Assembly (NCBI GenBank): GCA_002104905.1
Contig: MCFE01000585.1
Location: 1 to 55,616, forward strand
Length of the DNA: 55,616 nucleotides
DNA from: Basidiobolus meristosporus CBS 931.73
Taxonomy: Eukaryota; Basidiobolomycota; Basidiobolomycetes; Basidiobolales; Basidiobolaceae
Direction: 5' to 3'
Under the pieces are notes generated by a model. It was not told the DNA's origin. It searched no databases and worked only from the letters and a program-made list of their open reading frames with translations. Below, piece by piece: positions 188 to 55,616 of the stretch (position 1 is its first letter; each line of letters opens with the position of its first letter). Position numbers and translations under genes: made by a program.

Positions 188-2682
188 CGTATACAAAATT
201 TATCCTTAAGTGGGAAGAAGTATTTAATCACTTTTATTGATGATTATACAAGATACACATGGGTCTACTTCATGGAGAGAAAGGAAGAAGCTCTGTCTAA
301 GTTCAGGGAGTTTAAAGCCATGGTGGAGAGAGAAACTGGTGAAAAAATCAAGAAAATACGCTCTGACAATGGTGGAGAATATACCTCAAAACTCTTCATC
401 CACTTCTGCAAAATTCATGGGATAAAGCAAGAGACTACTGTACCATACTCCCCACAGCAAAATGGAGTAGCAGAACAAGCCAACAGATCAATAATTGATA
501 TGGCAAGATCTATGATCCATGATCAAAAATTATCATATGATTTTTGGGTGGAATCAGTTGCCACTTCTGTATACCTTAAAAATAGGAGTTATAACAGAAT
601 ACTTTGTGATTCCACTCCATTTGAAGCATGGTATGGGTGCAGACCAAGCGCAGAACATCTAAGAATATTTGGGTGCACAGCATATGCCAAAAAACTGGCC
701 GGAAATCAGTCAAAATTTGAGCCAAAAAGTGTAAAATGCATATTTTTGGGCTACTGCAATGAGAGTAAGGCATACAGACTCTACAATACCAAAGAAAAGA
801 AGCTTATCAAGTCCAGGGATGTGTTGTTTGATGAAAATTCAAAATTTTCACAAAAAATGACGTCAGATGATGACAAATATCTCATCTCAAATCCACCAAT
901 TGTCAGGATTGAATCAGAGCAAAACAATGAAGATTTTTCACTCCAGAGGAGTCTACAACCGTGGTTCAGCCAGAATCAGTGCCCAGGAATATCCCAGAAG
1001 TGATCATTCCAGTATCAAATGCCCGGAGATCCAATCAGACAAGAAATAGGCCAAATTACCATATCAATGAGGGTACAAACTTAGCCTATGCCTATTCAGT
1101 CCATATTGATGAGCCCCAGACTGTAAAAGAGGCCCTAAATAGCCCTCAGACAAAGTTTTGGAGATCAGCAATGACTGAAGAATATCAGGCCCTGATGGAA
1201 AATCAAACTTGGGACTTAGTCAAATTACCAATCAACCAAAAATCAATTGGATGCAGATGGGTCTTCAAGACAAAATACAAGGCTGATGGTAAAATTGAAA
1301 GATACAAAGCAAGACTTGTAGCCAAAGGATACTCTCAAACAAAAGGGCTTGACTATACTGAGACCTTTGCACCGGTAGCCAAGTTTAATTCCATCAGATT
1401 AATATTGGCTATTGCAGCCAAATATAAGTTTTTTATTCATCAAATGGATGTAAAAACTGCATTTTTGAATGGAGAACTTAATGAGGATGTGTATATGGAC
1501 CAGCCTGATGGGTTTGTTGACCAAAATAACCCCCATTTGGCTGGCAAGCTTAAAAAGTCACTATATGGTCTCAAACAATCACCAAGAGCCTGGAATTGCA
1601 AGATAGATTCTTATTTGGAATCTTTGAGTTTCAAAAGGAGCAATGCTGACTATAGTATATACTATAAGCCAGATAGAGCAAATCCAGTTCTATTAGCTCT
1701 ATATGTGAATGATCTTATTATAGCCACCAATAACCTAGAAACATTGGAAGAAACTAAATCCAGCCTATCTAAGGGGTTCAAGATGTCTGATTTAGGAGAA
1801 CTTAGTTACTACTGAGGAATTAAGTTTTCCATAGACAGAAGTACCCAGACTATCACCCTAAGTCAATCCAAGTATATTCAAGATATACTAAAGAAGTACA
1901 AAATGGAAGACTGTAAACCGGCAGCTAACCCAATGGAGACAAACCTTAACTTGGTCAAAACTCAACCAAATCAAGAGAGCTTGGTGCCATCTGAAAGCCC
2001 TGACTTTCCTTATCAATCTATGGTTGGCAGTCTGATGTATATCATGCTTGGAACACGTCCAGATATCTCATATTCAGTGGGAGTTGTCAGCCAACATAAT
2101 CAGAATTATGGATCTGATCATATTGCAGCAGTTAAGCGGATTTTTAGATACCTTAAAGGAACTGCTGATATCTGCTTAAGATAGATTTATAAGGATTCAG
2201 AAAAGGATCTTGTGGGATACTCTGATGCTGATTGGGGACAAAATTTTGAAGGCAGAAGATCCACCACAGTATACACCTTTCTTTAGTGTAAAGGAGCAAT
2301 TTCATGGAATTCAAGAAAGCAACCAACCGTAGCACTTTCCACCACAGAGGCAGAGTATATGGCAGCCTGTGAAGCTACAAAAGAAGCAATGTGGTTAAGA
2401 AAGCTGTTTACAGATTTAGGCCTATGTCAAAAAACACCTATTACTTTATTTCAAGATAATCAAGGATGTATACAATTAGGTAGAAATCCAACTTTTCATG
2501 CTAGAACCAAGCACAGACATATTAGACATCATTTGATACGTGATGCTATAGAGAATAACTTAGTTAGCTTAGTTTACTGTCCTACAGATGAAATGATTGC
2601 AGACATATTTACCAAACCATTAGCTAGAGACAAGTTTGAATATCTCAGGTCAAAATTAGGACTAGTCAGTATGAACATTTAG
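188..2682 (+). pseudogene. copia pol remnant (integrase-RT-RNase H), copy 1
   Basis: The remnant encodes the copia integrase core (SDNGGE and NGVAE catalytic segments), reverse transcriptase and RNase H. It is broken: one T is missing near 935-939, shifting the frame between integrase and RT. In-frame stops follow at 1813-1815, 2182-2184 and 2284-2286. The RT active site reads YVND instead of YVDD (Asp to Asn codon at 1708-1710), so the polymerase would be dead even if translated. The final stretch from 2359 to the stop at 2680-2682 is open. Lesions were found by comparison with the copy at 44-48 kb in this window. Confidence 0.9.
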
Positions 2683-2693
2683 CTGAGTGGGAG

Positions 2694-3043
2694 TGTTGTA
2701 AAAATTTGTAATTCCAACTAAATATTCACCTAACTTAGTCACTTAGATCATCACCTTCAAATCCTAGAGAATACTGACCAAAATTCCTTGTTGGGATTTA
2801 CTTACAATATTTTCACCAAAATACCAGGTACCCAGAACATGATAATTCTCAAAGTTGTCCAAGCTGCCCCAAACTGGACACACATGTTCTTAGGACCTTC
2901 CTTAACCTATTCTATGTGTTTGTTATGCCAAGAACATGTATAAGTATAAATACTACTTTTACATTCAATAAATCATTAAGTGAAAACCACACAATCTACT
3001 TGTCCTCCCAATCACTTCCAATATCTCCAAGACTCTTACAACA
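2694..3043 (+). repeat. 3' LTR of copia copy 1 (350 bp)
   Basis: It begins TGTTGTAA and ends TTACAACA, the terminal inverted repeats shared by all LTRs of this family here. It contains a TATAAATA promoter motif and an AATAAA polyadenylation motif near its centre-right. A purine-rich tract (GAGTGGGAG) lies just upstream. It differs at many positions from the young LTRs at 43.8 and 48.1 kb, so it is older. Confidence 0.92.
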
Positions 3044-3050
3044 ATAAACG

Positions 3051-4200
3051 CCATTTGGTCTGCAAGCTTAAAAAGTCTCTATATGGCCTTAAATAATCAC
3101 TGAGAGCCTGGAATTGCAAGATAGATTCCTATTTGGAGTCTTTGAGTTTCAAAAGGAGTAATGTTGACTATAGTATATACAATAAGCCAGATAGAGCAGA
3201 TTCAGTTTTATTAGTTCTATATGTGGATGATCTTATTGTAGCTGCCAATAACCTAGAAACATTGGAAGAGACTATATCCAGCCTATCTAAGGAGTTCAAG
3301 ATGTCTGATCTAGCAGAACTCAGTACCTACTTAGGGATTAAGTTCTCCATAGACAGAAGTACCCAGACTATCAGCCTAAGCCAATCCAGCTATATTCAAG
3401 ATATACTAAAGTGGTACCAAATGGAAGACTGTAAACTGGCGGCTACCCCAATGGAGACAAACCTTAACTTGGTCAAAACTCAACCAAATCAAGAGAGCTT
3501 GGTGCCATCTGAAAGCCCTGACTTTCCTTATCAATCTACAATTGGCAGTCTGATGTATATCATGCCTGGAGCATGTCCAGATATCTCATATTCAGTGGGA
3601 GTTGTCAGCCAGCATAATTAGAACTATGGATCTGATTATATTGCAGCAGTTAAGCGGATTTTTAGATACCTTAAAGGAACTGCTGATATCTGATTAAGAT
3701 ACATTTATAAGGATTCATAACAGGATCTTGTGGGATACTCTGATGCTGGTTGGGGACAAAATTTGGAAGGCAGAAGATCCACCACAGGATACACCTTTCT
3801 TTACTGTAAAGGAGCAATTTCATGGAACTCAAGAAAGCAACCAACCATAGCACTCTCCACCACAGAGGCAGAGTACATTGCAGCCTGTGAAGCTACAAAA
3901 GAAGCAATGTGGTTAAGAAAGCTTCTTACAGATTTAGGCTTATGTCAAAAAACATCTATTACTTTATTTCAAGATAATCAAGGATGTATACAATTAAGTA
4001 GAAATCCAGCTTTTCATGCTAGAACTAAGCACAGACATATTAGACATCATTTCATACTTGAAGCTATAGAGAATAACTTAGTTAGCTTAGTTTACTGTCC
4101 TACAGATGAAATGATTGCAGACATATTTACCAAACCATTAGCTAGAGACAAGTTCCAATATCTCAGGTCAAAATTAGGACTAGTCAGTATGAACATTTAG
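3051..4200 (+). pseudogene. copia RT-RNase H remnant, copy 2
   Basis: The remnant starts at the 'HLVCKLKKSLYGLK' part of RT and keeps an intact YVDD box. Gln codons became stops (TAA near 3091, TAG at 3619-3621), and further stops lie near 3692 and 3718. The RNase H segment from 3730 to the stop at 4198-4200 is open and keeps the DAxW, TEAEY and QDN motifs. It is non-functional as a polyprotein because all upstream domains are missing. Confidence 0.88.
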
Positions 4201-4211
4201 CTGAGTGGGGG

Positions 4212-4561
4212 TGTTGTAAAAATTTGTATTTCCACCTAAATATTCACCTAACTTAGTCACTTAGATCATTACCTTCAAGTCCTAGAGAATACTGACCAAA
4301 ATTCCTTGTTGGGATTTACTTAGAATACTTTCACCAAAATACCAGGTACCCAGAACATGAAAATTCTCAAAGTTGTCCAAACAGCCCCAAGCTTTGCACA
4401 CATGCTCTTGGGACCTTCCTTAGCCTTTTTTATGTGCTTGCTATGCCAAGACCATGTAAAAGTATAAATACTACTTTTACATTCAATAAATCATTAAGTG
4501 AAAATCACATAATCTACTTGTCCTCTCAATCACTTCTAATATCTCCAAGACTCTGACAGCA
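4212..4561 (+). repeat. 3' LTR of copia copy 2 (350 bp)
   Basis: It starts TGTTGTAA. The expected TTACAACA end is degraded to GACAGCA. It aligns throughout with the LTR of copy 1 and has the same TATAAATA and AATAAA motifs. Confidence 0.88.
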
Positions 4562-4624
4562 GTTAAGACTTTGTTTACACCTAAGCCACTCATAAGAAAT
4601 ATGATTGTATTGAGATTTTAGCTA

Positions 4625-4903
4625 TGTTATGACTTGTCTACTACAACTTAGTTTCTACAATATTTACCAATTCTCATAATTAGTCCAGGCCTGAAGGTTG
4701 ACATTATTCTCAAGCTCATCCTAATGCCCCTCAACTTTGCACACAGCTTCTTAGGACCTTCCTTGAAGTTCTCCTTTCACAGGTTCATGAAGGTCTCCTG
4801 AAAGTATAAATACCTCACTTGAACACAATAAAACAGCAAGTGAGTATTGTCATGTTGTTGTAGTTCTCAAAAGCAGTTCAAATACTCCCTAGAGTCTTGT
4901 AAT
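4625..4903 (+). repeat. distantly related copia-type LTR fragment
   Basis: Collinear patches match the right two thirds of the copia LTR: a CTTTGCACACA segment, GGACCTTCCTT, AAGTATAAATAC and a CAATAAA motif, in the same order and spacing. The ends are not clear, so the borders are approximate. It is probably a solo LTR of a sister family. Confidence 0.5.
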
Positions 4904-5700
4904 GGTTTGAAGAACTGTAAGATACTGCTCTTCACTGGTATTCTAGTATATCTGACTTATTTTATTAGCTGAAGTGGTTTATTTGAATAAGTAAATGTCC
5001 TAAATATAGCAATATTGACAGATCAACAGGTAAGTTCCAAAGTATCCCTTGAGCTTTAGTTTGACTGGTTGCAAAGTGTATGTAACCAGTAACAGGAAAG
5101 ATTTACGCCTAGGGTAATTGGAATCAGCCATTTTGGAATACATATGAACTCGCTTGATACAGATCTTTATGCCAAGTGTGAACTTCAAGAGTCTGAGTAG
5201 TTGAGTGCAATACAAGCAAAATTGCAAATATTATTTCTATATCAACCCATTTATACCTCTAGTAATAGCATGCTAACATTCTGATGTTGATAGAACCCTA
5301 TACTTTGATATTTCAAGGATTTGATTACCCAGTGGTATAAGAATCCAAGTCACATTAATGACTGATTGATTAGTATTATCTACCAGATTGATAACTGTAG
5401 ATATGGGATCTGGAGGGGGGGGGAGGGGTAATGTAATAGGCTTCAAACAAGAAATTGAAGTGAATCTCTATTCGCAGCATAATCAATATTGTCTACCAGT
5501 TACCGGATGGCGATTGCGCTGAATGATACGAACCTTACGTCAGAGATAATAAGTCATGGATTCCAAGGCTTAGGAAGTCTGAAATATCATGGAAATAGTC
5601 CATGTTTGAACACCCTTTAGATTTTCCAGTTCGCCCTACTTTTCAAATACCATTATTGATTGTATACTTCCCCTTTGCATCCAACTTGGCCCCACATACA
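4904..5700. other. intergenic
   Basis: No convincing gene is seen. A G-rich run lies around 5413-5428. The last part, 5600-5700, is pyrimidine-rich and is probably the 5' leader of the DM9 gene that follows. Confidence 0.5.
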
Positions 5701-7019
5701 ATGCCTCCTTCCTCTCCGCCTTTTCCAATTCCAGAGCTCGACCCTCGCATGCCAAAAGCGCCGACACAAGAAGAGCAGACACCCAGGTCTATGCCGAAAC
5801 CTCCAGGCGTTAGGTCAATCAATATGCCAAGGCCTCCAACAGTAGACCAAACTTCAACTCAGATGCCACAACCGCACATTCCTCAAAACACTCGGGCTAC
5901 TTCCAAATACCAGTCGATAGATTCGACCAATAGACCCCAGAATACCGTCTCCTTTCCTGAACCTATTACTGAAGCCTCAACCTTAGGGCTCCAGAATAAC
6001 GGAGTTTCCAGCGAGCACAGTAATCGTCCCCCCGGAAAGATTTTTTTCCCCCAACCCGAGTTACCGGACCATTTGACAACCACCGAAGCCATTCGAATGC
6101 CTACCGTCGAGGTGCCCAACTTCTCGATTCCTTTGGCTCAGCCTGCTGGGGAAATGCCCAGATTTCCGGTCCCAGAGATCTATCTAGGGTCTGGGGAGAA
6201 CGAGGAGGGTTGCGAGGAGGGTTCAGCAGAAGAAACCAGCTTTTCTGACAATGATTCCAATATGGTAGGGGTTGTGCCCGTAACTGATGACCTATACCCG
6301 CCTTTATTCTCAGGTTATCCACCAGCCAAACCCTCGCAGGTGGCAGCCTTATCCGATCTGACCGGGAGAAAAGATCTCGGCCAATTTGAGTGGGTTTATT
6401 CAGTAGATGGGTGAGTGAATACTTTTCCTTTGACAGCATATCGGATGTTGATCTTTGGTGATCTCGGCTCCAGATATATCCCACCCGAGGCGGTTGGTTG
6501 CGGCAAAGAGGTCAATGGAGCGCCGCTGTACGTCGCTCGTAGAGACTACAAGAAAGTCACCCACGTTGGCCTTGTAGGCCCTCATCTGAAAGGAATCCGA
6601 TTCACTCGAAAGAGTAAGTGACGTGTAAAGAGCACTCTCTGTTGCTTCACTATACTGACACACCGTTGCGGGTGTGCAGACTCGGTTCTGAAACAGAAGG
6701 CATGCTATGTATTATGTGGAAATATTCAAGGCCTCCGATGGATTAAGCATATGGGCTCCTTCAAAGCAGCCGGTGAGGAATTGGTTCAAGCCGGAGTGAC
6801 GGAGAATGGTAAACCAGTAAGTCGCTCTCGCACACCCCTGCTCATGCTATGGAAACCAGCTTAACCTCGTAACCTCAGATACACATCGGTATTGTTGATT
6901 ACCGTGGCGGGATTTACATCGGTGAAGTCGGTGAACATATCCAAGGTGGCATGTCGTTCGCATATCAAAGCAAGAAGATCATCGCTCCAGATTTTTACTA
7001 TGTTCTCGCATATAACTAG
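5701..7019 (+). CDS. DM9/DUF3421 domain protein with Met-Pro-rich N-terminus
   Basis: This is a four-exon gene: 5701-6410, 6474-6613, 6680-6816 and 6879-7019. The introns are 63, 66 and 62 nt with GTGAGT, GTAAGT and GTAAGT donors, and the spliced frame is open (375 aa). Residues from about 228 to the end form a DM9/DUF3421 domain (seen: FEWV, GYIPPEAVGCGKEVNG, LYVARRDY, HVGLVGPHL, then a second related half with LCGNIQGLRWI and IGIVDYRGGIYIGEVG). DM9 proteins in animals bind carbohydrates; a sugar-binding role here is inference. The N-terminal ~200 residues are low-complexity with repeated MPxxP units and an acidic segment. There is no signal peptide. The frame is open from 5602, but ATG 5701 follows a pyrimidine-rich leader and begins the MP-repeat, so it is preferred. 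Confidence 0.78.
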
Positions 7020-40503: not shown

Positions 40504-41616
40504 CTAGCATTTGAGAGGTATTGTCAGCTTATGCTCAGAGCGATAGTGCCGTTTCAAAGCATCTGTGCGATAGAATGATTTGGTGCAAATACTACAACTG
40601 TAAGGCCTCTCTCCAGTGTGCAAGCGAATATGTCTGTGGAGGTCATGTCTGCGGCGGAAATGACGGGAGCAAAATGGGCACAGATGTGTTCGCTTCTCCT
40701 TCTCACCAGGGGATGGTGCAGAGTCTGCTACCCCATTCATGAAGTTAAAAGGGGCGCCTCCATTGTTAGAATCGTTAGGCCTAGAGTCACCCATAGCGTG
40801 TGGGTGATAACGAAATACTCTGGAAGTAGATGAGTGGATGCCTTTGGATGGATTGCAATGGATAAATTTGATTCTGTTGGGAATTGACCCTGGTAAGAGA
40901 TTGGGGCTGGAATTGGAATATGCCTCGAGACCGACTGGATCCATAATCTCCTCCTCGAAACTTGAGGCCAAGTGCTGTGCAAGATGATCCGTTTCATCGC
41001 TGTGTATATCAAATTTGGAGCTTGTCACTTCTGTGGGAAAGAAATGTGCACTGTGTATCCCGAGGGGAAACAGCGGATAACTGTAGATGGGTGCGCAGTG
41101 GGTGACTGGATTCCGTATTGAATGATGCAATTCGGGAATCTGGCAGCAGGAAGAAATTCTCGGAGTATTTGCTGCTGGAAGAAGTAGTGGAGTAGCCATA
41201 TGGCACTGTGGGTTTTCAATGGCAGTAGTGCTAACTTGTGTGAGAGTCGAGGGATGTTGGTGAGGAGCAGAACGTAAACCATTGGGAAACTCTGCTCTCA
41301 GCTGATGGCTGAGTACCACAGGGCTGGCACCATCTACTGGGGCCCTGGTAAGATTCTTTGCAGGGGAGAGATGTGGCCTGTGGTTTGGTCCAATGTTTAA
41401 TGGCTGACTATTTACCAAGTATGCAGAGAGCGATGCATCGTAATCTAGCAAAGTAAAGACTAGATTTTAGTAGAAAACCTTGGGAACGTTTCCAATAACT
41501 ATATTACCAGCAGAAATTGGCTCAGTATCAGAGTAGAACCAATCCTCAATACTCATGTCATGAATGCTCGGATTGAGAGGACCAGCAGGGTTTATGCGGT
41601 TGGAGAGGGGCATCAT
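40504..41616 (-). CDS. C2H2 zinc-finger transcription factor (two fingers)
   Basis: Two exons (41616-41508, 41444-40504) joined across a 63-nt GTAATA..TAG intron that contains a TACTAAAA-like branch site; 349 aa. Two adjacent C2H2 fingers form the C-terminus: finger 1 C292, C295, H308, H312; linker TGERPY; finger 2 C320, C323, H336, H341 with a KSFYRTDALKRH helix. The rest is Pro/Ser/His-rich and probably disordered, with a short EDWF-containing acidic start. Known family role: sequence-specific DNA binding in the nucleus. The target is unknown. The first ATG pair is at 41616/41613. Confidence 0.87.
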
Positions 41617-43249: not shown

Positions 43250-43683
43250 AGTACTCTGCTGAGTAGTATATGCAAAGCTGAATAAACACTTGGTACAGAG
43301 TATGGCTTAATAAAACTATACTAAGCTTCATAATTCTTTTCAGGTTGCTGCCAGAGCTTAATCAAACTTGCATCCCAGATCACCAGGCCTAGCCTCTCAA
43401 ATAAGGCAACTCTTGCATGCGCTACCGCCAGCCTTGCTAAGTCATTTGTTATTTATCATGATCTCTTCTGCTTATAAGGATATCTGGGAGTTCTTGTACT
43501 TTGCATTTGTTTGCCATTTGGCTTGGTCAGCATAGTTTGAATTTTGTTTCTTTTCTCCAACTTTGGCAGAGCACTTAATGACACCACTTCCTGTTGCTCA
43601 AAACTTGTAAAAATCAATGACTAAAGTTATTAATTCCATAATATCAGTTATCCAGAGTACAAGAGCACTCAAAGTTATTCAAA
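43250..43683. other. intergenic, between copia remnants
   Basis: AT-rich sequence between the truncated minus-strand LTR and the older plus-strand LTR. No gene recognised. Confidence 0.4.
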
Positions 43684-43761
43684 CTGTTGTAAATTCTGCA
43701 ATTATGCCAAAATATTCACCTACCTCAGTCACTTAGATCATTGCCTGCAGATCTCAGTGAA

Positions 43762-43766
43762 TTCAG
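43762..43766 (+). repeat. target-site duplication of copia copy 3 (left)
   Basis: TTCAG immediately precedes the 5' LTR and is repeated exactly at 48455-48459 after the 3' LTR. Five bp is the normal copia duplication length. Confidence 0.93.
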
Positions 43767-44116
43767 TGTTGTAAAAATTCGTATTTTCCACCTAAATATT
43801 CACCTAACTTAGTCACTTAGATCATCATCTTCAAATCCTAGAGAATACTGACCAAATTCCTTGTCGGGATTTACTTAGAATATTTTCACCAAAATACCAG
43901 GTACCCAGAACATGAAAATTCTCAAAGTTGTCCAAACAGCCCCAAACTTTGCACACATGTTCTTGGGACCTTCCTTAACCTATTCTACGTGTTTGTAATG
44001 CCAAGACCATGTAAAAGTATAAATACTACTTTTACATTCAATAAATCATTAAGTGAAAACCACATAATCTACTTGTTCTCCCAATCACTTCCAATATCTC
44101 CAAGACTCTTACAACA
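43767..44116 (+). repeat. 5' LTR of copia copy 3
   Basis: TGTTGTAA...TTACAACA, 350 bp. It contains TATAAATA at 44018-44025, the likely Pol II promoter, and AATAAA at 44040-44045, the likely polyadenylation signal, so a very short R region is expected between them and the end. Confidence 0.95.
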
Positions 44117-44133
44117 GGTTATGAGCCCCGAGC
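44117..44133 (+). other. copia primer-binding site (half-tRNA type)
   Basis: GGTTATGAGCCCCGAGC starts at the first base after the 5' LTR. Its reverse complement reads as an initiator-Met tRNA anticodon arm (GGGGCTCATAACC, anticodon CAT), as in Drosophila copia, which is primed by a tRNA-iMet half cut in the anticodon loop. It does not resemble the acceptor-stem site TGGTATCAGAGC of plant elements. The internal ATG of this site is also the likely gag start codon. Confidence 0.75.
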
Positions 44134-47100
44134 TGTCACTCTCTGCAATGTCTACTACTGCTATTACTGGAATTTTTCCCTCTGCTGAAAAGTTGGATGG
44201 ATCTAACTACCAAGTGTGGAAGGTGAAGATGAAGATGCTGCTACAAGAAAGAGGCCTTTGGGATATTGTCATGGGAGAAGAATGCCCTCCTAAAAACGTG
44301 GGAGAGGAAGCCTTGAAGTACCAGAAGAAAGAACAAAGTGCCTTTAACTGCATTTGCCTTAATGTCAAGGACAAATTGCTAATTCAATGCTCAAGAGCAA
44401 AAACGGCAAAGAATGCCTGGAAAGCATTAGAAGACACCTACCAGTCATGTTCAGCTGCCAAGAAAATGTATCTGAGAAGAAAATTCTTTACTACAAAGAT
44501 GCTGCCAGGAGAAGAAATGAAAAATCTAATTAACAGAATTACCCTGCTGGTAGATGAGATGGAATCTGTGGGCGTACCAACTACTGATGAGGATGTGATA
44601 GTTACCATCCTGAATAGCCTGACAGACGAGTTTCAGGGCCTTGTATCAGCCCTAGAGTCCAGAACTGAAGATTTGACCTTAAATTACGTATATGGAAGGC
44701 TCCTGGATGAAGAATTAAGAAAATCAAGCGCCAATAAGAAGGAAGAAGAAAATGCTTTAATAAGCAATGATAACCAACAAAGGAGGTACCCAAGACCCTA
44801 CAAAGGCAACAGCAACCTATTTTGCAACTACTGCAAAAGGAAAGGACACACATCAGACCGGTGTTTCAAAAAGAGAGATTATCAGCAAAAGAAGCCTGAA
44901 TATGGAAATGCTGTAACAACTGAAGATAGACTATTCATATCTGCACTAAATATGACCACAAACAAGGATTCTCAGACGTGGTATATTGACTCTGGAGCTT
45001 CTCAACACTTTACACACCAAAAAGAACTTTTTACCCAATATCAAGAAATTCCAATTAAGAAGGTTTTCATGGGTGACGATAGAACACTTGATGCAGTGGG
45101 AGAAGGAACTATCCAAGTAAACCTTAGAAGCAGTGAAGGAAGCCATACACTGACCTTTAAAGAAGTACTCTATGTACCAGAAATAGCCAAGAACCTACTC
45201 TCTGTAAGCAAGGCCACAGCAGAAGGACTCAGTTTCAGTTTTGACAATTCTGGATGCAGGATCACTGATCAAAATGGTGCCCATATTGCTTCGGGCATCA
45301 GAGATCAGAACCTATACAAGTTGACTTATATTCCATCATATCTGGAAGCCAATATAAGTAACTTAAATGAAGAAACACCAATGCTTTGGCACAGGAGATT
45401 TGGACACATCAATTTTGATTATTTGCGTAAAATGATCAAAGATCAGCTAATTTCTGGAGTGAAAATTGATCCCCCAGCTATTTTGGAGCACTGTGAAGCC
45501 TGCATATATGGGAAACAAGCCAGACAACCGTTCAAGAGCTCTGGGTTAATCAAAACTAAGAAAAAATTAGATCTAATTCACTCAGATCTGTGTGGACCTA
45601 TGCAAAATTTATCCTTAGGCGGGATGAAGTATTTAATCACTTTTATTGATGATTATACAAGATACACATGGGTCTACTTCATGGAGAGAAAGGAAGAAGC
45701 TCTGTCTAAGCTCAGGGAGTTCAAAGCCATGGTGGAGAGAGAAACTGGTGAAAAAATCAAGAAAATACGCTCTGACAATGGTGGAGAATATACCTCAAAA
45801 CTCTTCATCCACTTCTGCAAAATTCATGGGATAAAGCAAGAGACTACTGTACCATACTCCCCACAGCAAAATGGAGTAGCAGAACGAGCTAACAGATCAA
45901 TAATTGATATGGCAAGATCTATGATCCATGATCAAAAATTATCCTATGATTTTTGGGCGGAATCAGTTGCCACTGCTGTATATCTTAAAAATAGGAGTTA
46001 TAACAGAATACTTCGTGATTCTACTCCATTTGAAGCATGGTATGGATACAGACCAAGTGCAGAACATCTAAGAATATTTGGGTGTACAGCATATGCCAAA
46101 AAACTGGCCGGAAATCAGTCAAAATTTGAGCCAAAAAGTGTAAAATGCATATTTTTGGGCTACTGCAATGAGAGTAAGGCATACAGACTCTACAATACCG
46201 AAGCAAAGAAGCTGATCAAGTCCAGGGATGTGTTGTTTGATGAAAATTCAAAATTTTCACAAAAAATGACATCAGATGATGACGAAAATTTGATCTCAAG
46301 TCCACCAATTGTCAGGATTGAATCAGAGCAAAACAATGAAAATTTTTTCACTCCAGAGGACTCTACAACCGTGGTTCAGCCAGAATCAGTGCCCAGGAAT
46401 ATCCCAGAAGTGATCATTCCAGTATCAAATGCCCGGAGATCCAATCGAACAAGAAATAGCCCAAATTACTATATCAATGAGGGTACAAACTTAGCCTATG
46501 CCTATTCAGTCCATGTTGATGAACCCCAGACTGTAAAAGAGGCCCTAAATAGCCCTCAGACGAAGTTTTGGAGATCTGCAATGACTGAGGAATATCAGGC
46601 CCTGATGGAAAATCAAACTTGGGACTTAGTCAAATTACCAATCAACCAAAAATCAATTGGATGCAGATGGGTCTTCAAGACAAAATACAAGGCTGATGGT
46701 ACAATTGAAAGATACAAAGCAAGACTTGTAGCCAAAGGATACTCTCAAACAAAAGGACTTGACTATACTGAGACCTTTGCACCGGTAGCCAAGTTTAATT
46801 CCATCAGATTAATATTGGCTATTGCAGCCAAATATAAGTTTTTTATTCATCAAATGGATGTAAAAACTGCATTTTTGAATGGAGAACTTGATGAGGACGT
46901 GTATATGGACCAGCCTGATGGTTTTGTTGACCAAGATAACCCCCATTTGGTCTGCAAGCTTAAAAAGTCACTATATGGTCTCAAACAATCACCAAGAGCC
47001 TGGAATTGCAAGATAGATTCTTATTTGGAATCTTTGAGTTTCAAAAGGAGTAATGCTGACTATAGTATATACTATAAACCAGATAGAGCAAATCCAGTTC

Positions 47101-48093
47101 TATTAGCTCTATATGTGGATGATCTTATTATAGCCGCCAATAACCTAGAAACATTGGAAGGGACTAAATCCAGCCTATCTAAGGAGTTCAAGATGTCCGA
47201 TCTAGGAGAACTTAGTTACTACTTAGGGATTAAGTTCTCCATAGACAGAAGTACCCAGACTATTACCCTAAGCCAATCCAAGTATATTCAAGATATACTA
47301 AAGAAGTACAAAATGGAAGACTGTAAACTGGCAGCTACCCCAATGGAGACAAACCTTAACTTGGTCAAAACTCAACCAAATCAAGAGAGCTTGGTGCCAT
47401 CTGAAAGCCCTGACTTTCCTTATCAATCTATGGTCGGCAGTCTGATGTATATCATGCTTGGAACACGTCCAGATATCTCATATTCAGTGGGAGTTGTCAG
47501 CCAACATAATCAGAATTATGGATCTGATCATATTGCAGCAGTTAAGCGGATTTTTAGATACCTAAAAGGAACTGCTGATATCTGTTTAAGATACACTTAT
47601 AAGGATTCAGAACAGGATCTTGTGGGATACTCTGATGCTGATTGGGGACGAAATTTAGAAGACAGAAGATCCACCACAGGATACACCTTTCTTTACTGTA
47701 AAGGAGCCATTTCATGGAATTCAAGAAAGCAACCAACCGTAGCACTTTCTACTACAGAGGCAGAGTATATGGCAGCCTGTGAAGCTACAAAAGAAGCAAT
47801 GTGGTTAAGAAAGCTCTTTACAGATTTAGGCCTATGTCAAAAAAACGCCTATTACTTTATTTCAAGATAATCAAGGATGTATACAATTAGGTAGAAATCC
47901 AACTTTTCATGCTAGAACCAAGCACATAGATATTAGACATCATTTCATACGTGAAGCTATAGAGAATAACTTAGTTAGCTTAGTTTACTGTCCTACAGAT
48001 GAAATGATTGCAGACATATTTACCAAACCATTAGCTAGAGACAAGTTTGAATATCTTAGGTCAAAATTAGGACTAGTCAGTATGAACATTTAG
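44121..48093 (+). CDS. copia gag-pol polyprotein, frameshifted near its end
   Basis: Starting at ATG 44121 (alternative 44148), with the frameshift ignored, the frame would encode about 1,323 aa. Domains in order: UBN2-type gag (LDGSNYQVWKVKMKMLL); CCHC knuckle CNYCKRKGHTSDRC at 235-248; protease WYIDSGAS with D290; GAG-pre-integrase; integrase D489, D552, E588 (35 residues between the last two); RT with YVDD at 998-1001; RNase H beginning around D1172 with STTEAEY. An A7 run at 47839-47845, A6 in the two older copies, shifts the frame and gives a stop at 47868-47870. The original frame resumes to the stop at 48091-48093. All catalytic motifs otherwise look intact. The shift may be a real null mutation or a homopolymer sequencing error. 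Confidence 0.93.
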
Positions 48094-48104
48094 CTGAGTG
48101 GGAG
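48094..48104 (+). other. polypurine tract of copia copy 3
   Basis: CTGAGTGGGAG lies between the pol stop codon and the 3' LTR. Its GAGTGGGAG core is the expected plus-strand primer and is conserved upstream of all three 3' LTRs. Confidence 0.75.
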
Positions 48105-48454
48105 TGTTGTAAAAATTCGTATTTTCCACCTAAATATTCACCTAACTTAGTCACTTAGATCATCATCTTCAAATCCTAGAGAATACTGACCAAATTCCTT
48201 GTCGGGATTTACTTAGAATATTTTCACCAAAATACCAGGTACCCAGAACATGAAAATTCTCAAAGTTGTCCAAACAGCCCCAAACTTTGCACACATGTTC
48301 TTGGGACCTTCCTTAACCTATTCTACGTGTTTGTAATGCCAAGACCATGTAAAAGTATAAATACTACTTTTACATTCAATAAATCATTAAGTGAAAACCA
48401 CATAATCTACTTGTTCTCCCAATCACTTCCAATATCTCCAAGACTCTTACAACA
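48105..48454 (+). repeat. 3' LTR of copia copy 3
   Basis: Apparently identical to the 5' LTR across 350 bp by eye. It is followed by the TTCAG target duplication at 48455-48459. Confidence 0.95.
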
Positions 48455-50617: not shown

Positions 50618-51769
50618 CTAAGAATGCCCAATTGGCTTTGTATCCTGCTCAATCACCAAGAGTGCACCGGATGTTGCAAGCCCAGTGAATTGGCCAGTTA
50701 CTTTTGGATCTGGCCCAATTAGGTTATTTGGGAATCCTACATCGAATGGATTGACGCTCTCCAAATAATCAATCTGCTCCTTTGTCAGCCTGATATTCAA
50801 TGCTTGTATGTTCGCCTCCAGGTGCTCTACTTTTCTTCCTCCAATGATAGGGAAAACACGTGGCGTCTTGGACATAACGTACGCAATAGCAATGGCCGTT
50901 AACGATTCGATGCCATGTTCTGACGCCACTTTGGCTAGTGCCTCGCTCATTCTTGCCTCCTCCTCACTCTGTCCCTTACCAAAGATGCTCCGAAGGCCCT
51001 CTCCTCTCTTCTCGCGTTCAGCGATAGCTGCTTTAGTCTGGAATTTGCCCCCACCGAGGACATCCCAAGGTGCCAGAGCCATACCAAAGTGGCGTGCCAT
51101 GGGGATGATCTCGCGCTCGAAATCCCGCCTCATGATATTCCACCTGCCCTGGTAAATGCTGAATGGTGTCTTACCATGAGAGCGAGCGTAGTAGTTTGCT
51201 GCACTCACGATCCAAGCGGGAGTATCAGATATACCAAGATATAGGACTTTGCCTTGCTGTACAAGAATATCAAGACTGTCCATGATTTCTTCGATCGAGG
51301 TTGTGTGGTCCCACCAGTGCACGTACAAAATATCAATCCAATCCGTCTGTAGCTTGAGTAAGGAATCACGTACACTCATGTGAAGACTTCTCTTGTGGTT
51401 TCCACTGTGATTTGGTACTTTCCCCTTGCCCAGCTGGTGGGATTTGTAGTCGGAGGTGTATTTGGTTGCAATCACGATTTGATCCCGGTTTTTACGCTGG
51501 GCCATCCATTCGCCAATCCAAGTCTCGGACTGCTCAGATTGATAATTATTGGCGGTGTCAATGAAGTTACCTCCGGCATCATAGTAGGTGTCAAGCATTT
51601 TGAAAGCAGTCTCCTTATCCATGGAACCCATGAATTCGGACCAGGCGTCACCAATAGACCCTGCCCCAAGTTGCAGAGGTGATACGCGAATCCCAGCGGT
51701 CGAAGAAAGGATGCGGTAGCGTCCAAGCTCGGTGGAAGGTTCAGGTGCAGGTTTCATGAATTCTGCCAT
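50618..51769 (-). CDS. aldo-keto reductase, aryl-alcohol dehydrogenase (AAD) type
   Basis: A single exon of 383 aa. NADP(H)-dependent reductase of the AAD14/norsolorinic-acid-reductase-like AKR group, cytosolic, reducing aromatic or other aldehydes (family knowledge; substrate unknown). The catalytic tetrad is visible: D71 and Y76 in [11 protein letters not shown]103 in ATKYTS, H151 in LYVHWWDH. Also seen are [32 protein letters not shown] and a C-terminal [13 protein letters not shown] cofactor-binding loop. The frame is open further upstream, but a TATATATA box only 55-62 nt before ATG 51769 makes that ATG the start. It is the last host gene before the telomeric LINE array; yeast AAD genes are also often subtelomeric. 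Confidence 0.95.
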
Positions 51770-52293
51770 GGTGAATGTTTGCAATGTATTTGAGTTGTGC
51801 CCCAAAGATGGCTTACATGCCAATATATATACTCTGCGTTGCCGGGTAAATGGATCTATTAGTGATTCCGGAAGATGACTCTCTAATGGCATCCGCAGCG
51901 TCCTATATTGGAACCGCACTTTTGTCAGTCAAGTTCTTTTCACCCAACCTTCAGCATAGACGCTTAATTGATACGACACGTAAGCGAGGAATCATTAGTA
52001 ATCCTACTTGTGGAAGGGGTTGGAACCGTCTATCCAGCGTTATTGGTTTTAAGCTGCTTGAAAGCTTTAGCAGATCCTGAGGTTCATAAAACTGGGAATC
52101 AATATGCCAACTACAAGTTCTATCACCTCGCTTTCGCCTACCCGTCTCAAAATCATTGCGTAGTGGGACTTACAAAATACTCAATGGTATAACTAGCTTA
52201 ATTACACAAACTTCTGGTTGCTTCTAAGCAAAAATTGAACCGCAAATACTATGGCCATTGGAATGGTTACCACACACGGAGTCATCAGGACTA
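51770..52293. other. AKR promoter side and unique sequence before the LINE array
   Basis: Short frames without domains. Unique sequence ends abruptly at the first TTAGGG pair (52295), which may mark an old healed chromosome end or the first LINE insertion point (inference). Confidence 0.5.
51824..51831 (-). promoter_or_regulatory. TATA box of the AKR gene
   Basis: TATATATA on the minus strand, 55-62 nt upstream of ATG 51769. Confidence 0.55.
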
Positions 52294-52294
52294 C

Positions 52295-52306
52295 TTAGGG
52301 TTAGGG
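52295..52306 (+). repeat. telomere-type repeat (TTAGGG)2, junction 1
   Basis: CTTAGGGTTAGGG at the 3' border of LINE fragment A. The minus strand reads AATAAA (complement of 52318-52323), then AACTTAGAA, then CCCTAACCCTAAG. Confidence 0.85.
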
Positions 52307-52957
52307 TTCTAAGTTCTTTTATTGAGTCTGATTAAGTTTTATAATACCATTTCAACTTGATTCAAGTTGAATAGTGCAAATTGTACAAGGTAGTTATATC
52401 TATATTAATGTGAAGGTAAAAATACTGCAAAAATTGAGTTGAGTTCTGAAAAGGAATTTGTCAACAAGTCAGGCTAGAATATGAAGTAGAGCTGGGAGTT
52501 ACTTGAAAGCAAAGCACCAAGGGAAAGTGTAAAGCTTTACTACCACTTCCTGGAAGGCAGTAACCTCTCAGGAAGGCAGATGCTCTGGTCTTACTGCGGA
52601 TATGATAGCAGAAAGTCACTGGATGAGCTCCCTTTGTTTGTGGAATTGGAATGAAGATTGGGTATCTTTGAACCCAAAGCAGCTCTCTATATGAGAGAAG
52701 TAAAAATACATGCTACAGTGGGGGCATTTGGAACCCAAGCAAAGTGTGTTCATTCTCCACCTTATGACCTGGAAAGCAAAGAAGGAACTCCTGATGTAAA
52801 GGGATATGTCTACTCCACTATGGGACTGTCAACTCTCATGAGAAATAAGTCCAACTCTGTCTTTTGAACTAGTGACTCTGGAGATATTCTCCAGCTTCCT
52901 TTTATGCATTGCTACAGAGAGAGAGGAATATGCTCACTGGGTGACTTGGCACCGTAA
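52307..52957 (-). mobile_element. LINE fragment A (family I), 5'-truncated
   Basis: Minus-strand LINE 3' end. It contains a decayed version of the C-terminus of fragment B, including a still readable CCHC knuckle (CPHC, then H and C at the same spacing), followed by a long 3' untranslated part and a family-I tail with AATAAA and CCCTAACCC. Several stops break the frame. The 5' border is at the hairpin-only insert at 52958. Confidence 0.75.
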
Positions 52958-52991
52958 GGTAGGGGAGGGAAGTCACCAAGTAGGTGAAATC
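52958..52991 (-). mobile_element. hairpin-only LINE tail (family II), extreme 5' truncation
   Basis: About 34 bp match only the terminal hairpin (TCACC-AAGTA-GGTGA on the plus strand) and C-rich end of family-II LINEs. They are sandwiched between fragment A and the telomeric repeat of fragment B. It looks like an insertion in which reverse transcription stopped right after the hairpin. Confidence 0.6.
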
Positions 52992-53003
52992 TTAGGGTTA
53001 GGG
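52992..53003 (+). repeat. telomere-type repeat (TTAGGG)2, junction 2
   Basis: CTTAGGGTTAGGG at the 3' border of LINE fragment B, in the same phase relative to the tail as at junction 1. Confidence 0.88.
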
Positions 53004-54135
53004 TTCTAGTGCTTTATTGGGATAATGAGTATTGTAATGGAACATACATGCTAAAGGAGCAAATACTAGCTGATGTAAAGCCTGTGTAAGCAAGAGGGAT
53101 AGCTGGGAGTGTTCAGAGTGTGAAAATTATGTCAAAGTGGTTTGAACATGAAAGGGCCAAGGTAATCTCATAGTAGCTGGTAATCATTTGTGTTAGTGGT
53201 ACAGATATTTCAAGGCAGAAGCTCAAGTCTAATTGCAGCTATTATGCAATTTAATCTTCTGACCAAAGCTCTCTGAGTATGAAACTGGAAGAGTGCATCA
53301 GTATCCTTGAATTCAGAGCATCTTTCAGCATGAGTATAGTAGAAGGGCTGCTTGCAGATTGGGCACTTGGAGCCCAGACATAAGGTATTCATCCTCCATC
53401 TTATAGCCTGGAGGGAATAGAAGGTGCACTTCAGGTACAATGACACATCAGCACCACTATGTGTGTGTCTACTGTCCTTTCTGATAAGCCTAATTCTATC
53501 CCTTGATGTAGTAACTTGTGATATATTCTGAAGTCTCCTTTGATGCATTGCAACCCAAAGGGGAATCTGTCCTCCAGGAGGTGCACTGCTGTTGGCTAGT
53601 ACATATTATTTGCAGCCAGCTGGGCAATGTACTCCTTTTTTGATTAAAGAGTTTGGAGTAGTGTCTATTCTTCTTCCTACAATGGCATCTACCAAAGCCC
53701 TCAATGGGTTGTCAGGGCTAGACTTTGCAAAGTGCTGGTCAAACCTGATACTTAAAGTCTCAAATCTCTGGGATACTGATTCAATGCCGGTCAAGCTTTG
53801 AATCAATCTATGGTACTGGTTAGTATGATACAGAGAAGAACTTACTACCCAGCCTAAGCTTTCCCTTTGTACTAGTTCAATTCTGTGCAAGATATCAGGG
53901 CTGAGAGTGAAGTGCATCATTGGGGCAGAGTACTCCCACCAAGATCTTAGGAAGGATTTAAATAGTTGCAGTCCAACAAGGAGGGGCCATCTTGAACCTT
54001 TTGCCTGCAAAGTTCTCAGTAGTGCAAGAGCTTTTGATATACAATTGTCAACATAAAGTTGCCAATCAACACCAGTTCTACATACAGGTAGGCCTAGATA
54101 GCTGTAATAATTGGGAGCAGGTAGTGCTACTCCAT
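53004..54135 (-). mobile_element. LINE fragment B (family I), 5'-truncated
   Basis: About 1.1 kb comprising the C-terminal part of ORF2, a roughly 190-bp 3' UTR with AATAAA (complement of 53013-53018), and the family-I tail CACTAGAACCCTAACCC. The 5' end is truncated inside reverse transcriptase, directly at the next telomere-like junction. Confidence 0.85.
53210..54135 (-). pseudogene. LINE ORF2 C-terminal fragment (RT end and CCHC knuckle)
   Basis: The reading begins in the RT thumb region (YSYLGLPV, then LRTLQAKGSRWPLL and FLRSWWEYSAPM), continues through the post-RT domain and ends in a CCHC zinc knuckle, C-x2-C-x7-H-x3-C. One in-frame TAA at 53606-53608 interrupts it; the same frame continues on both sides to the stop at 53210. 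The 5' part, including the RT active site, is missing, so it is non-functional. An open frame extends upstream to 54163, but those first codons belong to the telomeric junction and the tail of fragment C. Confidence 0.82.
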
Positions 54136-54150
54136 CTAGGGTTATGGGGG
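54136..54150 (+). repeat. degenerate telomere-type junction 3
   Basis: CTAGGGTTATGGGGG separates LINE fragments B and C. One TTAGGG unit carries a substitution, so this is an older or imperfect junction. Confidence 0.65.
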
Positions 54151-54683
54151 AGACAGTCACCAACAGGTGAAATCTTTATTTCAGTTGAAACAAAGAAGCC
54201 AGCGCTACTGTTGTAGCTTTGATACAAGAGTGTGTAACTGAGGGGAATTTGTAGGTACGTTAATAAGAAGTGATGATAGTTCTTCAGTGCTCAAGACACT
54301 GTTCAGTGGTAAGGGGGGTAGCAAGAGAGGTAAGAATGATTTGTGAACAACATTAATGAGGGGAATGTGATAAGGATTGATATTCATCATAAAGGGAGTG
54401 TGCTGCTGCAGATATTGCTGCCAAAGGTCTGTCAAGTACTTCAGGTAGGCCAGCTTGGGTTTTTCTGACTGCAGAATAAATTCAGCAAACTTCTTGACTT
54501 CAGGATCTCCAAGTATAGTTCTCCAGCAGGAGCCAGGTGTAGTGTGGTGTGTTCTCTTCCAGGCCTTAATCAGTGGGTTGTTGCAGTTGTGAAGTCTGAG
54601 GTATAATCTGGTTCTAAGGTAGAGAAGTCTGATCTTATAGGGCATAAACCCAAAAGCATCAAGAATAGCATGTCTGTAGGGGC
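54151..54683 (-). mobile_element. LINE fragment C (family II), 5'-truncated
   Basis: About 530 bp of minus-strand LINE 3' end: coding tail, AAATAAAG, then the family-II hairpin (plus strand TCACC 54157-54161, loop AACA, GGTGA 54166-54170). The C-terminus differs from that of family I and has no CCHC knuckle. Confidence 0.8.
54205..54683 (-). pseudogene. LINE ORF2 C-terminal fragment, family II
   Basis: About 158 codons of a post-RT domain (FGFMPYKIRLLYLRTRLYLRLH, NNPLIKAWKRTH), ending SKLQQ-stop about 30 nt before the tail. FGxxPxxxRxLYLRxxLYxRLH is typical of LINE C-terminal regions. No start codon and no catalytic RT residues are present. Confidence 0.7.
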
Positions 54684-54696
54684 TTAGGGTTAGGGG
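54684..54696 (+). repeat. telomere-type repeat (TTAGGG)2G, junction 4
   Basis: CTTAGGGTTAGGGG between LINE fragments C and D, same phase as junctions 1 and 2. Confidence 0.88.
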
Positions 54697-55250
54697 AGGG
54701 AAAGTCACCAAAGTAGGTGAAATCTTTATTTGATTTCAGACAAGTCTAACTACAAATAAAGAGGCCAGCTGGGAATAGAAGATTCCCAAAGTAAACACTA
54801 AGTTGAATATGAATAAATCTAAGTTAAAGTTAAGGCAGTATCCCAGAGTACACTGGAGTTCAGGTTCATGGGGGAGTGAAGTAGATAAGCTTGAGAGATA
54901 TAATAATCTTTGAGGAAGTGGGTAACAGCAGGTGAAGGGGAGTTTTTGATAAGTGAAGTGAATCTTGAGATCAGAGATTCCTCTAATGAGAAGGTCTTGT
55001 AAACTGGAGAATCAGGAAACTCTTTGAAGGCATGGTCAGTAGGTTCCCAGTAAAACTGGTCAGAGACATTTTGAGAGAATTGCTCAGCAATATTTTTGTC
55101 AAGTACTACCTCCAGGGTGTGATGGTTGATAAATCTCATGTTGACAATCTTGGATAAGTTGTAACCTTGTTGCTTGAGATACATCCTATGCTCAGATATA
55201 GGAATAAACTCTACATTGGCAAAGTAGCAGACAGCCCAGTCAGTAGCAGG
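54697..55250 (-). mobile_element. LINE fragment D (family II tail, ORF1-like interior)
   Basis: It carries the family-II tail (AAATAAAG plus hairpin TCACC-AAAGTA-GGTGA), but its coding content is unlike B or C and resembles a LINE ORF1 segment. Either an internal deletion joined ORF1 to the 3' UTR or a different element shares the tail. Confidence 0.72.
54819..55247 (-). pseudogene. LINE ORF1-like fragment
   Basis: An open frame from the 5' truncation point through DWAVCYFANVEFIPISEHRM and NLSKIVNMRFINHHTLEVV to a stop at 54819. The pattern (hydrophobic strand, RMxLKxxG helix, KIVNMRFI..TLEV strand) is like the nucleic-acid-binding ORF1 region of fungal LINEs, but I cannot name a domain with certainty. 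No zinc knuckle is seen. The 5' end is cut by the telomeric junction. Confidence 0.5.
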
Positions 55251-55260
55251 AGGGTTAGGG
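55251..55260 (+). repeat. telomere-type repeat, junction 5
   Basis: AGGGTTAGGG followed by a G run, between LINE fragments D and E. Confidence 0.8.
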
Positions 55261-55616
55261 GGGGAGGAAAGTCACCAAGTGGTGAAATCTTTATTTACTT
55301 ATGACAAGTATCTAAAGAAGCCAAGTTAATCTGAAGTTATTCCTAGAAAGCTAGGTCTGAGAGATATCTTCCTGGTAAGCCAGGTCTGAGAGTTGAGAAG
55401 CTGAGTGGTACTATATTTCCTAGTTAGCTAGGTCTGAGAGAGGTTTCCTGGAAAGCCAGGCCTGAGAAGTGAGAATCTGAATATATCTGAGCTAAGTTAT
55501 ACTGGTTTGCGGTAGCTGAATTGTGGCCGGAATGGCCAGTAGACTGGGGGAACTGAGAGGAATTTCTGGGCGATCACTGGCCAAATTTACTAGGCAAATC
55601 TGGCCAATTAGCATTT
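55261..55616 (-). mobile_element. LINE or LINE-tailed element E (family II tail), runs off the window
   Basis: It begins with the family-II hairpin (plus strand TCACC 55272-55276, loop AAGT, GGTGA) and AAATAAAG. Its interior is noncoding in all frames visible and contains four short hairpin repeats. It could be a long 3' UTR of an autonomous LINE or a SINE-like parasite using the LINE tail. The 5' end lies beyond 55616. Confidence 0.65.
55342..55468 (-). repeat. four 22-nt hairpin repeats with compensatory changes
   Basis: Copies at 55342-55363, 55371-55392, 55419-55440 and 55447-55468. The plus-strand pattern is a 5-bp stem, 4-nt loop, 5-bp stem, then TCTGAGAG: CCTAG-AAAG-CTAGG, CCTGG-TAAG-CCAGG, CCTAG-TTAG-CTAGG, CCTGG-AAAG-CCAGG. 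The fourth stem pair alternates A:T and G:C while the stem is preserved. Confidence 0.8.

What the first reader, a model, noticed from the sequence alone, without database searches (positions are those of the whole stretch)
52294..55616. Tandem array of 5'-truncated LINEs with TTAGGG at every junction: candidate telomere-primed retrotransposons
Seen: at least five LINE pieces, all on the minus strand. Each has its 3' tail adjoining CCCTAA-type sequence (52295, 52992, 54136, 54684, 55251), and its 5' end is cut by the next junction. The plus strand therefore reads TTAGGG, then the complement of a LINE from 3' to 5', then TTAGGG again. This is what results if the telomeric G-strand 3' end primes reverse transcription of an RNA ending in CCCUAACCC and the telomere is then extended again. 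Known parallels: SART/TRAS of silkworm, HeT-A/TART of Drosophila, MoTeR of Magnaporthe. Inference: the true chromosome end lies to the right and these elements help maintain or cap it.
Basis: partly seen in the sequence, partly recalled or inferred. Interest (0 to 1): 0.87.

Follow-up and report, generated by a model that had tools for sequence, protein, structure and literature searches.

The report
Retrotransposon arrays capping fungal chromosome ends
In a gut fungus, several kinds of jumping DNA pile up head to tail at chromosome ends, joined by scraps of telomere sequence, and some are joined straight onto genes cut in the middle, as if they helped seal broken chromosomes alongside telomerase.

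Summary
The window is contig C852 of an 89 Mb genome identified as Basidiobolus meristosporus CBS 931.73. Its right end is a head-to-tail array of 5'-cut non-LTR elements, 3' ends inward, separated by 0-2 TTAGGG. The contig stops inside the last element, but sister contigs run on: of 23 array-bearing contig ends read to the end, 16 finish in (TTAGGG)n, 15 of them 191-243 bp. The genome holds 1,671 copies of the shared 3' tail; in ten contigs over 100 kb, 38 of 38 listed tails point 3' inward within 22.2 kb of an end. Seven joins to non-telomeric DNA with a known uninterrupted site (an ABC-transporter gene, Copia) show elements attached to truncated ends; host sequence does not resume, and six of seven run to telomere. 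Telomerase is encoded, so sole maintenance is unsupported. Best reading: the G-strand 3' end, natural or broken, primes reverse transcription of RNAs with a CCCUAA-type tail. It works like MoTeR or HeT-A but is neither.

The parts
43842..47870 (+). Copia polyprotein open frame; this Copia region (43301-48400) served as the uninterrupted site for six element joins found in sister contigs
50618..51928 (-). aldo/keto reductase gene, last recognised host gene before the array
   Evidence: PF00248 270.7 bits; 85% protein match to Basidiobolus meristosporus
52295..52306 (+). junction 1: (TTAGGG)2 between host DNA and element A1
   Evidence: alignments to 19 other A1-type places begin at AGGGTTAGGG or further left in 19 of 19; of these only the C11 copy was read
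52307..52961 (-). element A1, 3' portion, 5'-truncated
   Evidence: tail recurs at 19 other places: 6 on the minus strand at 271-5,922, 12 on the plus strand at 41,171-155,045, and C285:5,241 plus
52962..52991 (-). 30-nt scrap of a hairpin-type 3' tail
   Evidence: GGGGAGGGAAGTCACCAAGTAGGTGAAATC
52992..53003 (+). junction: (TTAGGG)2
53004..54136 (-). element A2: a different coding sequence, frames ending with CPICKQPFYYTHAERC (CCHC-like); taken as a second LINE lineage by its look, the 179-aa piece has no Pfam match
54137..54150 (+). junction: degenerate TAGGGTTAT plus 5 G
54151..54683 (-). element B (two-ORF LINE family; full copies about 4.6 kb), 3' 533 nt
   Evidence: 97% to the L022 copy
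54684..54696 (+). junction: TTAGGGTTAGGGG
54697..55250 (-). element C (ORF1-only family), 3' portion with the ORF1 C-terminal part 54822-55247
55251..55264 (+). junction: AGGGTTAGGGGGGG
55265..55616 (-). element D (SINE-like, 520 nt when complete), cut by the contig end
   Evidence: same sequence as the D copy in L011; 16 copies with the full 5' end motif average 96.9% identity

Best explanation
The array is part of a chromosome end built by non-LTR retrotransposition onto the G-rich 3' strand. Element RNAs carry a shared 3' tail (AATAAA, a TCACC/GGTGA stem, a C-run, then CCCUAA-type sequence). The 3'-OH of a shortened telomere or of a broken chromosome pairs over a few nucleotides with the C-rich tail and primes reverse transcription, so the element lies 3' end inward. 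Synthesis often stops early or the end erodes, giving 5' truncation; telomerase re-seeds TTAGGG there over a few nucleotides of microhomology; the cycle repeats. LINEs B and G probably supply the enzyme for ORF1-only elements C and E and for SINE-like D, which share the tail. Shown: location, orientation, arrays, joins to truncated host DNA, microhomology at B ends, a telomerase domain. Inferred: end priming rather than an endonuclease nick, RNA-borne origin of the telomeric letters, enzyme sharing, repair role.
For: 16 of 23 contig ends read to the end (picked because they carry tails or terminal repeats) finish in (TTAGGG)n; C424 starts with CCCTAA repeats, has minus-strand element sequence at the left and plus-strand tails at the right. 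38 of 38 listed tails in ten contigs over 100 kb lie within 22,160 bp of the end their 5' side faces (another pattern adds C80:24,745, same orientation). Tracts are short: 76 of 79 with t at most 9 nt; genome-wide 320 tails with at least two repeats and 68 with at least three, against 1,671 tails by a slightly different pattern. An ABC-transporter gene (ABC_tran 40.2 bits) is cut in C1 as ...CCCTTCAGG|GTTAGGGGGGG-element, where C1241 and C476 read ...CCCTTCAGGCCGGCG; six Copia joins likewise; host sequence does not resume in 7 of 7, six of the seven stretches end in telomere. Microhomology of at least 3 nt at 11 of 27 distinct B 5' junctions against 6% in a blunt-join simulation. T6 within 20 nt at 1 of 79 junctions.
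Against: The endonuclease domain is kept (APE-like fold, GDLN and SDH motifs), which an element needing only free ends might lose; only the catalytic glutamate reads D. C402:165,365 is interior. Tract length falls off smoothly (81% of the 79-junction sample with at least one repeat; 19% and 4% genome-wide for two and three), so a fixed RNA-borne tail is not proven for the hairpin families. The window's own end is not seen; 7 of the 23 ends read stop without a terminal array. Array copying between ends is possible: the same complete D 5' end is joined by GGTTA to the next element in 8 of 79 junctions.
Confidence: 0.7

Rival explanations
1. MoTeR-like history: elements nick and insert anywhere inside long telomeres; long internal TTAGGG tracts break and are lost, so only insertions next to the base with at most two repeats survive.
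For: In Magnaporthe stable internal tracts are at most (TTAGGG)2 and longer ones break (passages of PMC7367193). Here 68 places have three or more repeats against 1,671 tails. The endonuclease domain is retained.
Against: Seven joins start directly in non-telomeric DNA with 0-2 repeats. With terminal arrays of about 200 bp, insertion within two repeats of the base should be rare (inference). No REL-type CCHC or RHD/N motif in family B ORF2.
Confidence: 0.2
2. Most arrays arose by recombination (break-induced replication, gene conversion) copying arrays between ends; retrotransposition is old.
For: The same complete D 5' end joined by GGTTA to the next element recurs in 8 of 79 junctions; C2 carries three near-identical units of about 120 bp.
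Against: The B truncation points are mostly different. B copies are mostly 95-99% alike, with outliers of 85-94%, some with long open frames, and ORF1 of family C has pooled pN/pS 0.26, which suggests recent coding-competent sources.
Confidence: 0.15
3. Telomerase alone heals broken ends; elements insert afterwards into the first new repeats and have no role in healing.
For: A telomerase RNA-binding domain is encoded; terminal arrays start with microhomology at several B ends.
Against: Joins with almost no telomeric letters exist, such as L017 1582 and L029 5193 (t = 1); the first is imprecise and the left flank of the second is unidentified.
Confidence: 0.3

Closest known systems
MoTeR1/MoTeR2 (Magnaporthe) and FoTeR (Fusarium)
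   Same: Fungal telomeric non-LTR arrays, 5' ends toward the chromosome end, short TTAGGG tracts, truncated copies capped by new telomere, a non-autonomous partner, repeats upstream (passages of PMC7367193; abstract and sections 16, 18, 19 of PMC12857005)
   Different: FoTeR and MoTeR1 group with CRE/SLACS and have a C-terminal REL endonuclease; here the endonuclease is N-terminal APE-type and no REL-type motif was found in family B. Here there are several LINE families, ORF1-only elements and a SINE-like element.
HeT-A/TART/TAHRE (Drosophila)
   Same: Head-to-tail array, 3' end inward, attachment to broken ends, a Gag-like-only element (C, E) beside a polymerase-bearing one (B, G) (these features of HeT-A are recalled)
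   Different: Drosophila lacks telomeric repeats and telomerase activity (passage of PMC7265360); this fungus has the repeats and a telomerase domain. No sequence relationship shown.
TRAS/SART (Bombyx)
   Same: Telomeric repeats as home, telomerase-type repeats retained, short telomere-like RNA annealing proposed for SART1 (passages of PMC7265360); APE-type endonuclease (recalled)
   Different: SART1 work reports a poly(A) tail and at least three target repeats; here T6 adjoins 1 of 79 junctions and joins to non-telomeric DNA occur.
Stringent LINEs with a recognised 3' stem-loop (zebrafish ZfL2-1, ZfL2-2)
   Same: A 3' stem-loop bound by ORF2 protein (abstract of PMC4176376); a shared tail between LINE and SINE-like elements fits that logic
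   Different: Here the shared tail also carries a telomere-complementary end and copies sit at chromosome ends.

Membership tests
MoTeR/FoTeR (CRE group) | REL (restriction-like) endonuclease with CCHC motif, C-terminal | tested here: not met
   no C-x-C-x-H-x-C or RHD/N motif in ORF2 of family B by pattern; model of relative P0001 resembles L1 ORF2p and APE-family nucleases
MoTeR/FoTeR (CRE group) | 5' ends toward chromosome end, head to tail, TTAGGG between copies | tested here: met
HeT-A/TART system | replaces telomerase | tested here: not met
   terminal (TTAGGG)n and two Telomerase_RBD pieces, 40.5 and 34.7 bits, the second with one TAG inside
HeT-A/TART system | Gag-only element beside element with RT | tested here: met
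   C and E copies seen carry ORF1 only; B and G carry ORF1 and ORF2
TRAS/SART (R1 clade) | APE-type endonuclease in ORF2 | tested here: met
   Exo_endo_phos_2 21.1 bits, below the 27.4 cut-off; Foldseek: L1 ORF2p first, APE-family nucleases from rank 23
TRAS/SART (R1 clade) | R1-clade reverse transcriptase | not tested
   no labelled clade references; named proteins in the list are mostly insect, about 25-39% identity
TRAS/SART (R1 clade) | poly(A) tail at the 3' junction | tested here: not met
   T6 within 20 nt in 1 of 79 junctions
tRNA-derived SINE (element D) | Pol III boxes A and B | tested here: inconclusive
   box B pattern at nt 56, box A consensus pattern not found (box motifs recalled); ARAGORN and Rfam report no tRNA
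tRNA-derived SINE (element D) | short, non-coding, shares 3' tail with a LINE | tested here: met
   520 nt, longest ATG frame 40 aa; common tail

The most novel reading that the evidence does not exclude
A telomere-healing community: LINE reverse transcriptases copy several RNAs, including Gag-only RNAs and a 520-nt non-coding SINE-like RNA with a telomerase-like C-rich tail, directly onto broken or eroded chromosome 3' ends without a nick, so that a SINE can be the outermost cap before telomerase finishes the end. A complete D 5' end followed by at least three TTAGGG occurs at 27 places; in six of them, including both ends of contig C424, it lies at most 212 bp from the end of a contig of known length, while others (C45, C760, C424:311,587) are internal.
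Probability: 0.4. Interest if true: 0.86.

Novelty: new variant of a known kind. Interest (0 to 1): 0.74.

Why it matters
If end-priming holds, this is a fungus far from Magnaporthe and Fusarium that joined an APE-type LINE lineage, Gag-only elements and a SINE-like RNA to chromosome-end repair while keeping telomerase. It would be an intermediate between ordinary telomerase telomeres and the Drosophila type, and would let one ask how a retrotransposon takes over chromosome ends. Over 1,600 tails in one genome, plus empty sites, make the mechanism directly testable. Basidiobolus is known for very many small chromosomes (passage of PMC3281927); frequent end breakage and healing could be part of that (speculation).

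Tried and rejected
Hard cap at exactly two repeats as proof of an RNA-encoded tail: suggested by 79 junctions (none with t 10-18), but genome-wide counts fall off smoothly (320 then 68 against 1,671 tails; the numerator patterns do not require the whole tail), so dropped for the hairpin families; kept as likely only for family A1 (19 of 19 alignments).

Empty site for the window's own junction: none; only a paralogue of the gene part at C448. Empty sites for the L023 and L021 left flanks: both proved to be repeats, so the 30 'host or other' junctions are mixed with uncharacterised elements; the lack of difference from the 49 element junctions (p 0.25) is weak evidence.

tRNA origin of D: ARAGORN and Rfam negative; relaxed ARAGORN gave only tRNA-??? 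calls elsewhere in the element. Covariation of the tail stem: not testable, stem nearly invariant. RT clade: not assigned, for want of labelled references. Some negative microhomology values come from imperfect array starts; one junction there is listed twice (27 distinct, not 28). Stretch L030 stops 404 bp short of its contig end and is left out of the count of ends (23), but its tail is in the 79.

In print: only 3 papers of the library hold both Basidiobolus and telomere, none on this subject by listing; searches, seen as ranked listings, showed none on telomeric retrotransposons of Basidiobolus nor one recognisable as about a telomere-targeted SINE. Open-licence PMC only.
Full report
What the window is. 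The window is the whole of contig C852 (55,616 bp) of a genome of 89.0 Mb in 1,311 contigs. The window's aldo/keto reductase has an 85% relative named Basidiobolus meristosporus CBS 931.73 on a contig of 123,797 bp; contig C448 of this genome, which holds the 84% DNA paralogue, is 123,797 bp long. I take the organism to be that strain.

Check of the observation. CCCTAACCC occurs five times in the window, four at stated junctions, against 0.25 expected. Reading 52,294-55,616 gives A1, a 30-nt tail scrap, A2, B, C and D, all minus strand. (TTAGGG)2 lies before A1 and before A2, a degenerate TAGGGTTATGGGGG before B, TTAGGGTTAGGGG before C and AGGGTTAGGGGGGG before D. The contig stops inside D.

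The chromosome end. C1, C2 and C21 end in (TTAGGG)n preceded by the same elements. I fetched 24 right-end stretches (C1, C2, C21 and the window's own, plus twenty picked because they carry tails); 23 reach the contig end, one stops 404 bp short. Of the 23, 16 end in TTAGGG arrays, 15 of them 191-243 bp and one 49 bp; 7 do not. Twenty left-end stretches of other contigs (18 of 600 nt, two longer) showed no terminal array. TTAGGGTTAGGG counts 9,082 forward and 237 reverse; at 30.2 per terminal array (16 arrays) this is at most about 300 telomeric ends, in keeping with reports of about 60 to many hundreds of chromosomes (passage of PMC3281927). C424 (312,558 bp) begins with CCCTAA repeats, has a minus-strand tail at 1,175 and plus-strand tails near its right end.

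Census. The tail GTCACCAN{3,6}GTGAAATC occurs 1,526 times forward and 145 reverse, 0 in reversed-pattern controls. Only the first 100 places are listed; 38 of them lie in the ten contigs over 100 kb whose length I know, and 38 of 38 point 3' inward, at most 22,160 bp from the end. A 16-nt pattern adds C80:24,745, same orientation. One interior copy was seen (C402:165,365, 80.7 kb from the right end).

The elements. Family B, about 4.6 kb, has ORF1 (502 aa; weak coiled-coil type Pfam matches), a single in-frame stop, then ORF2 (922 aa). Some B copies have broken frames (L022). ORF2 has RVT_1 (89.8 bits) and a weak Exo_endo_phos_2 match (21.1 bits, cut-off 27.4). An AlphaFold2 model of the relative P0001 (mean pLDDT 77.6, pTM 0.61) matches human L1 ORF2p first, and APE-family nucleases from rank 23; no TRAS1 endonuclease is among the 50 rows shown. 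GDLN and SDH are kept; the residue aligned with the catalytic glutamate of other LINEs reads D in B, P0001 and P0003 (the catalytic role is recalled), and G reads LIDVKL too. Five unnamed relatives are 48-80% identical; the other 78 hits are 21-39%. Family G is a second LINE (RVT_1 72.6 bits). In the copies I saw, families C and E carry only an ORF1-type frame (242 and 266 aa from the first ATG). Thirteen C stretches aligned to one copy without gaps, 4 of the 13 with an in-frame stop; pooled pN/pS over pairs of the nine longer than 300 nt is 0.26 (pairs are not independent). One relative was found, in B. ranarum (49%, partial). D is 520 nt with no ATG frame over 40 aa; 16 copies with the full end motif, among 22 D tails, average 96.9% identity. 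B, C, D, E, F and G share AAATAAAGATTTCAC-loop-GGTGA and a C-run. A1 and A2 have other tails; A1 tails recur at 19 other places, 6 on the minus strand at 271-5,922, 12 on the plus strand at 41,171 or more, and one at C285:5,241 plus (most of these contig lengths are unknown).

Junctions. Among 79 tails the telomeric match before the G-run is 0-9 nt in 76 and 19-25 nt in 3. Genome-wide at least two repeats precede 320 tails and at least three 68. B 5' ends meet the next telomeric letters with at least 3 nt of microhomology in 11 of 27 cases against 6% in simulation.

Joins to non-telomeric DNA. Contig C1 cuts an ABC-transporter gene (ABC_tran 40.2 bits over profile positions 84-137 of 137) after ...CCCTTCAGG and continues GTTAGGGGGGG-AGACAGTCACC; C1241 and C476 read on as ...CCCTTCAGGCCGGCGTACAG (97% and 94% alignments ending at this point; 61 nt of each read). 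Six joins lie inside Copia, three in each orientation, with the window's own Copia as the uninterrupted site; overlap is 0-3 nt in five and one (L017) is imprecise; L035 rests on 33 nt. The host sequence beyond the join does not resume up to the contig end in 7 of 7 (600 nt searched for each Copia case, 38 nt for the ABC gene), and in six of the seven the contig ends in telomere.

Mechanism. The plus strand reads host or telomere, then the complement of the element from its 3' end, so the G-strand 3'-OH primed first-strand synthesis. Short tracts, joins to truncated genes, lack of poly(T) and microhomology favour priming by free 3' ends on a CCCUAA-bearing RNA tail. Whether the telomeric letters come from the RNA or from a brief telomerase seeding is open. 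The kept endonuclease domain is the main point against a purely nick-free mode. A telomerase RNA-binding domain is encoded at C880 in two pieces (40.5 and 34.7 bits, the second with one TAG inside).

Compared with what is known. MoTeR and FoTeR are the closest in architecture but have REL endonucleases and CRE-group reverse transcriptases. HeT-A/TART is closest in logic but without telomerase. SART1 needs telomeric target repeats. I found no report for Basidiobolus in the open-licence library.

Noticed in passing
G000, all contigs: TTAGGGTTAGGG is 9,082 forward against 237 reverse, so terminal arrays lie mostly at right contig ends; probably how the assembler orients contigs, not biology.
   Followed up: partly
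L022 5700-6120, L017 5480-6200, L035 4300-4610: The three B copies with the 5' leader that I read carry CCCTAACCCTAA about 75 nt before ORF1; element D has CCCTAACCC near its 5' end. Possibly a binding site for a telomere-repeat protein acting as promoter (speculation).
   Followed up: partly
L022 5895-6099: A 100-105 bp unit is repeated twice in tandem at the 5' end of B, reminiscent of the upstream repeats of FoTeR.
   Followed up: partly
L023 4600-5222: Another repeat of about 620 bp, in the same orientation sense (plus at high, minus at low coordinates in most rows), at over 20 places; unclassified.
   Followed up: no
L011 1-99: U6 snRNA gene about 4.9 kb from the telomere of contig C21 (74.7 bits).
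   Followed up: no
C402:165300-165420 (L061): Interior tail copy with TTAGGGTTAGGG, 80.7 kb from the right contig end; relic, insertion or mis-join.
   Followed up: partly
L009 4846-4882: About 37 bp of unidentified filler between the last truncated element and the terminal telomere of C1.
   Followed up: no
L022 4262; L032 element nt 388-390: ORF1 and ORF2 are in one frame separated by a single stop in families B and G, suggesting re-initiation or stop read-through.
   Followed up: partly
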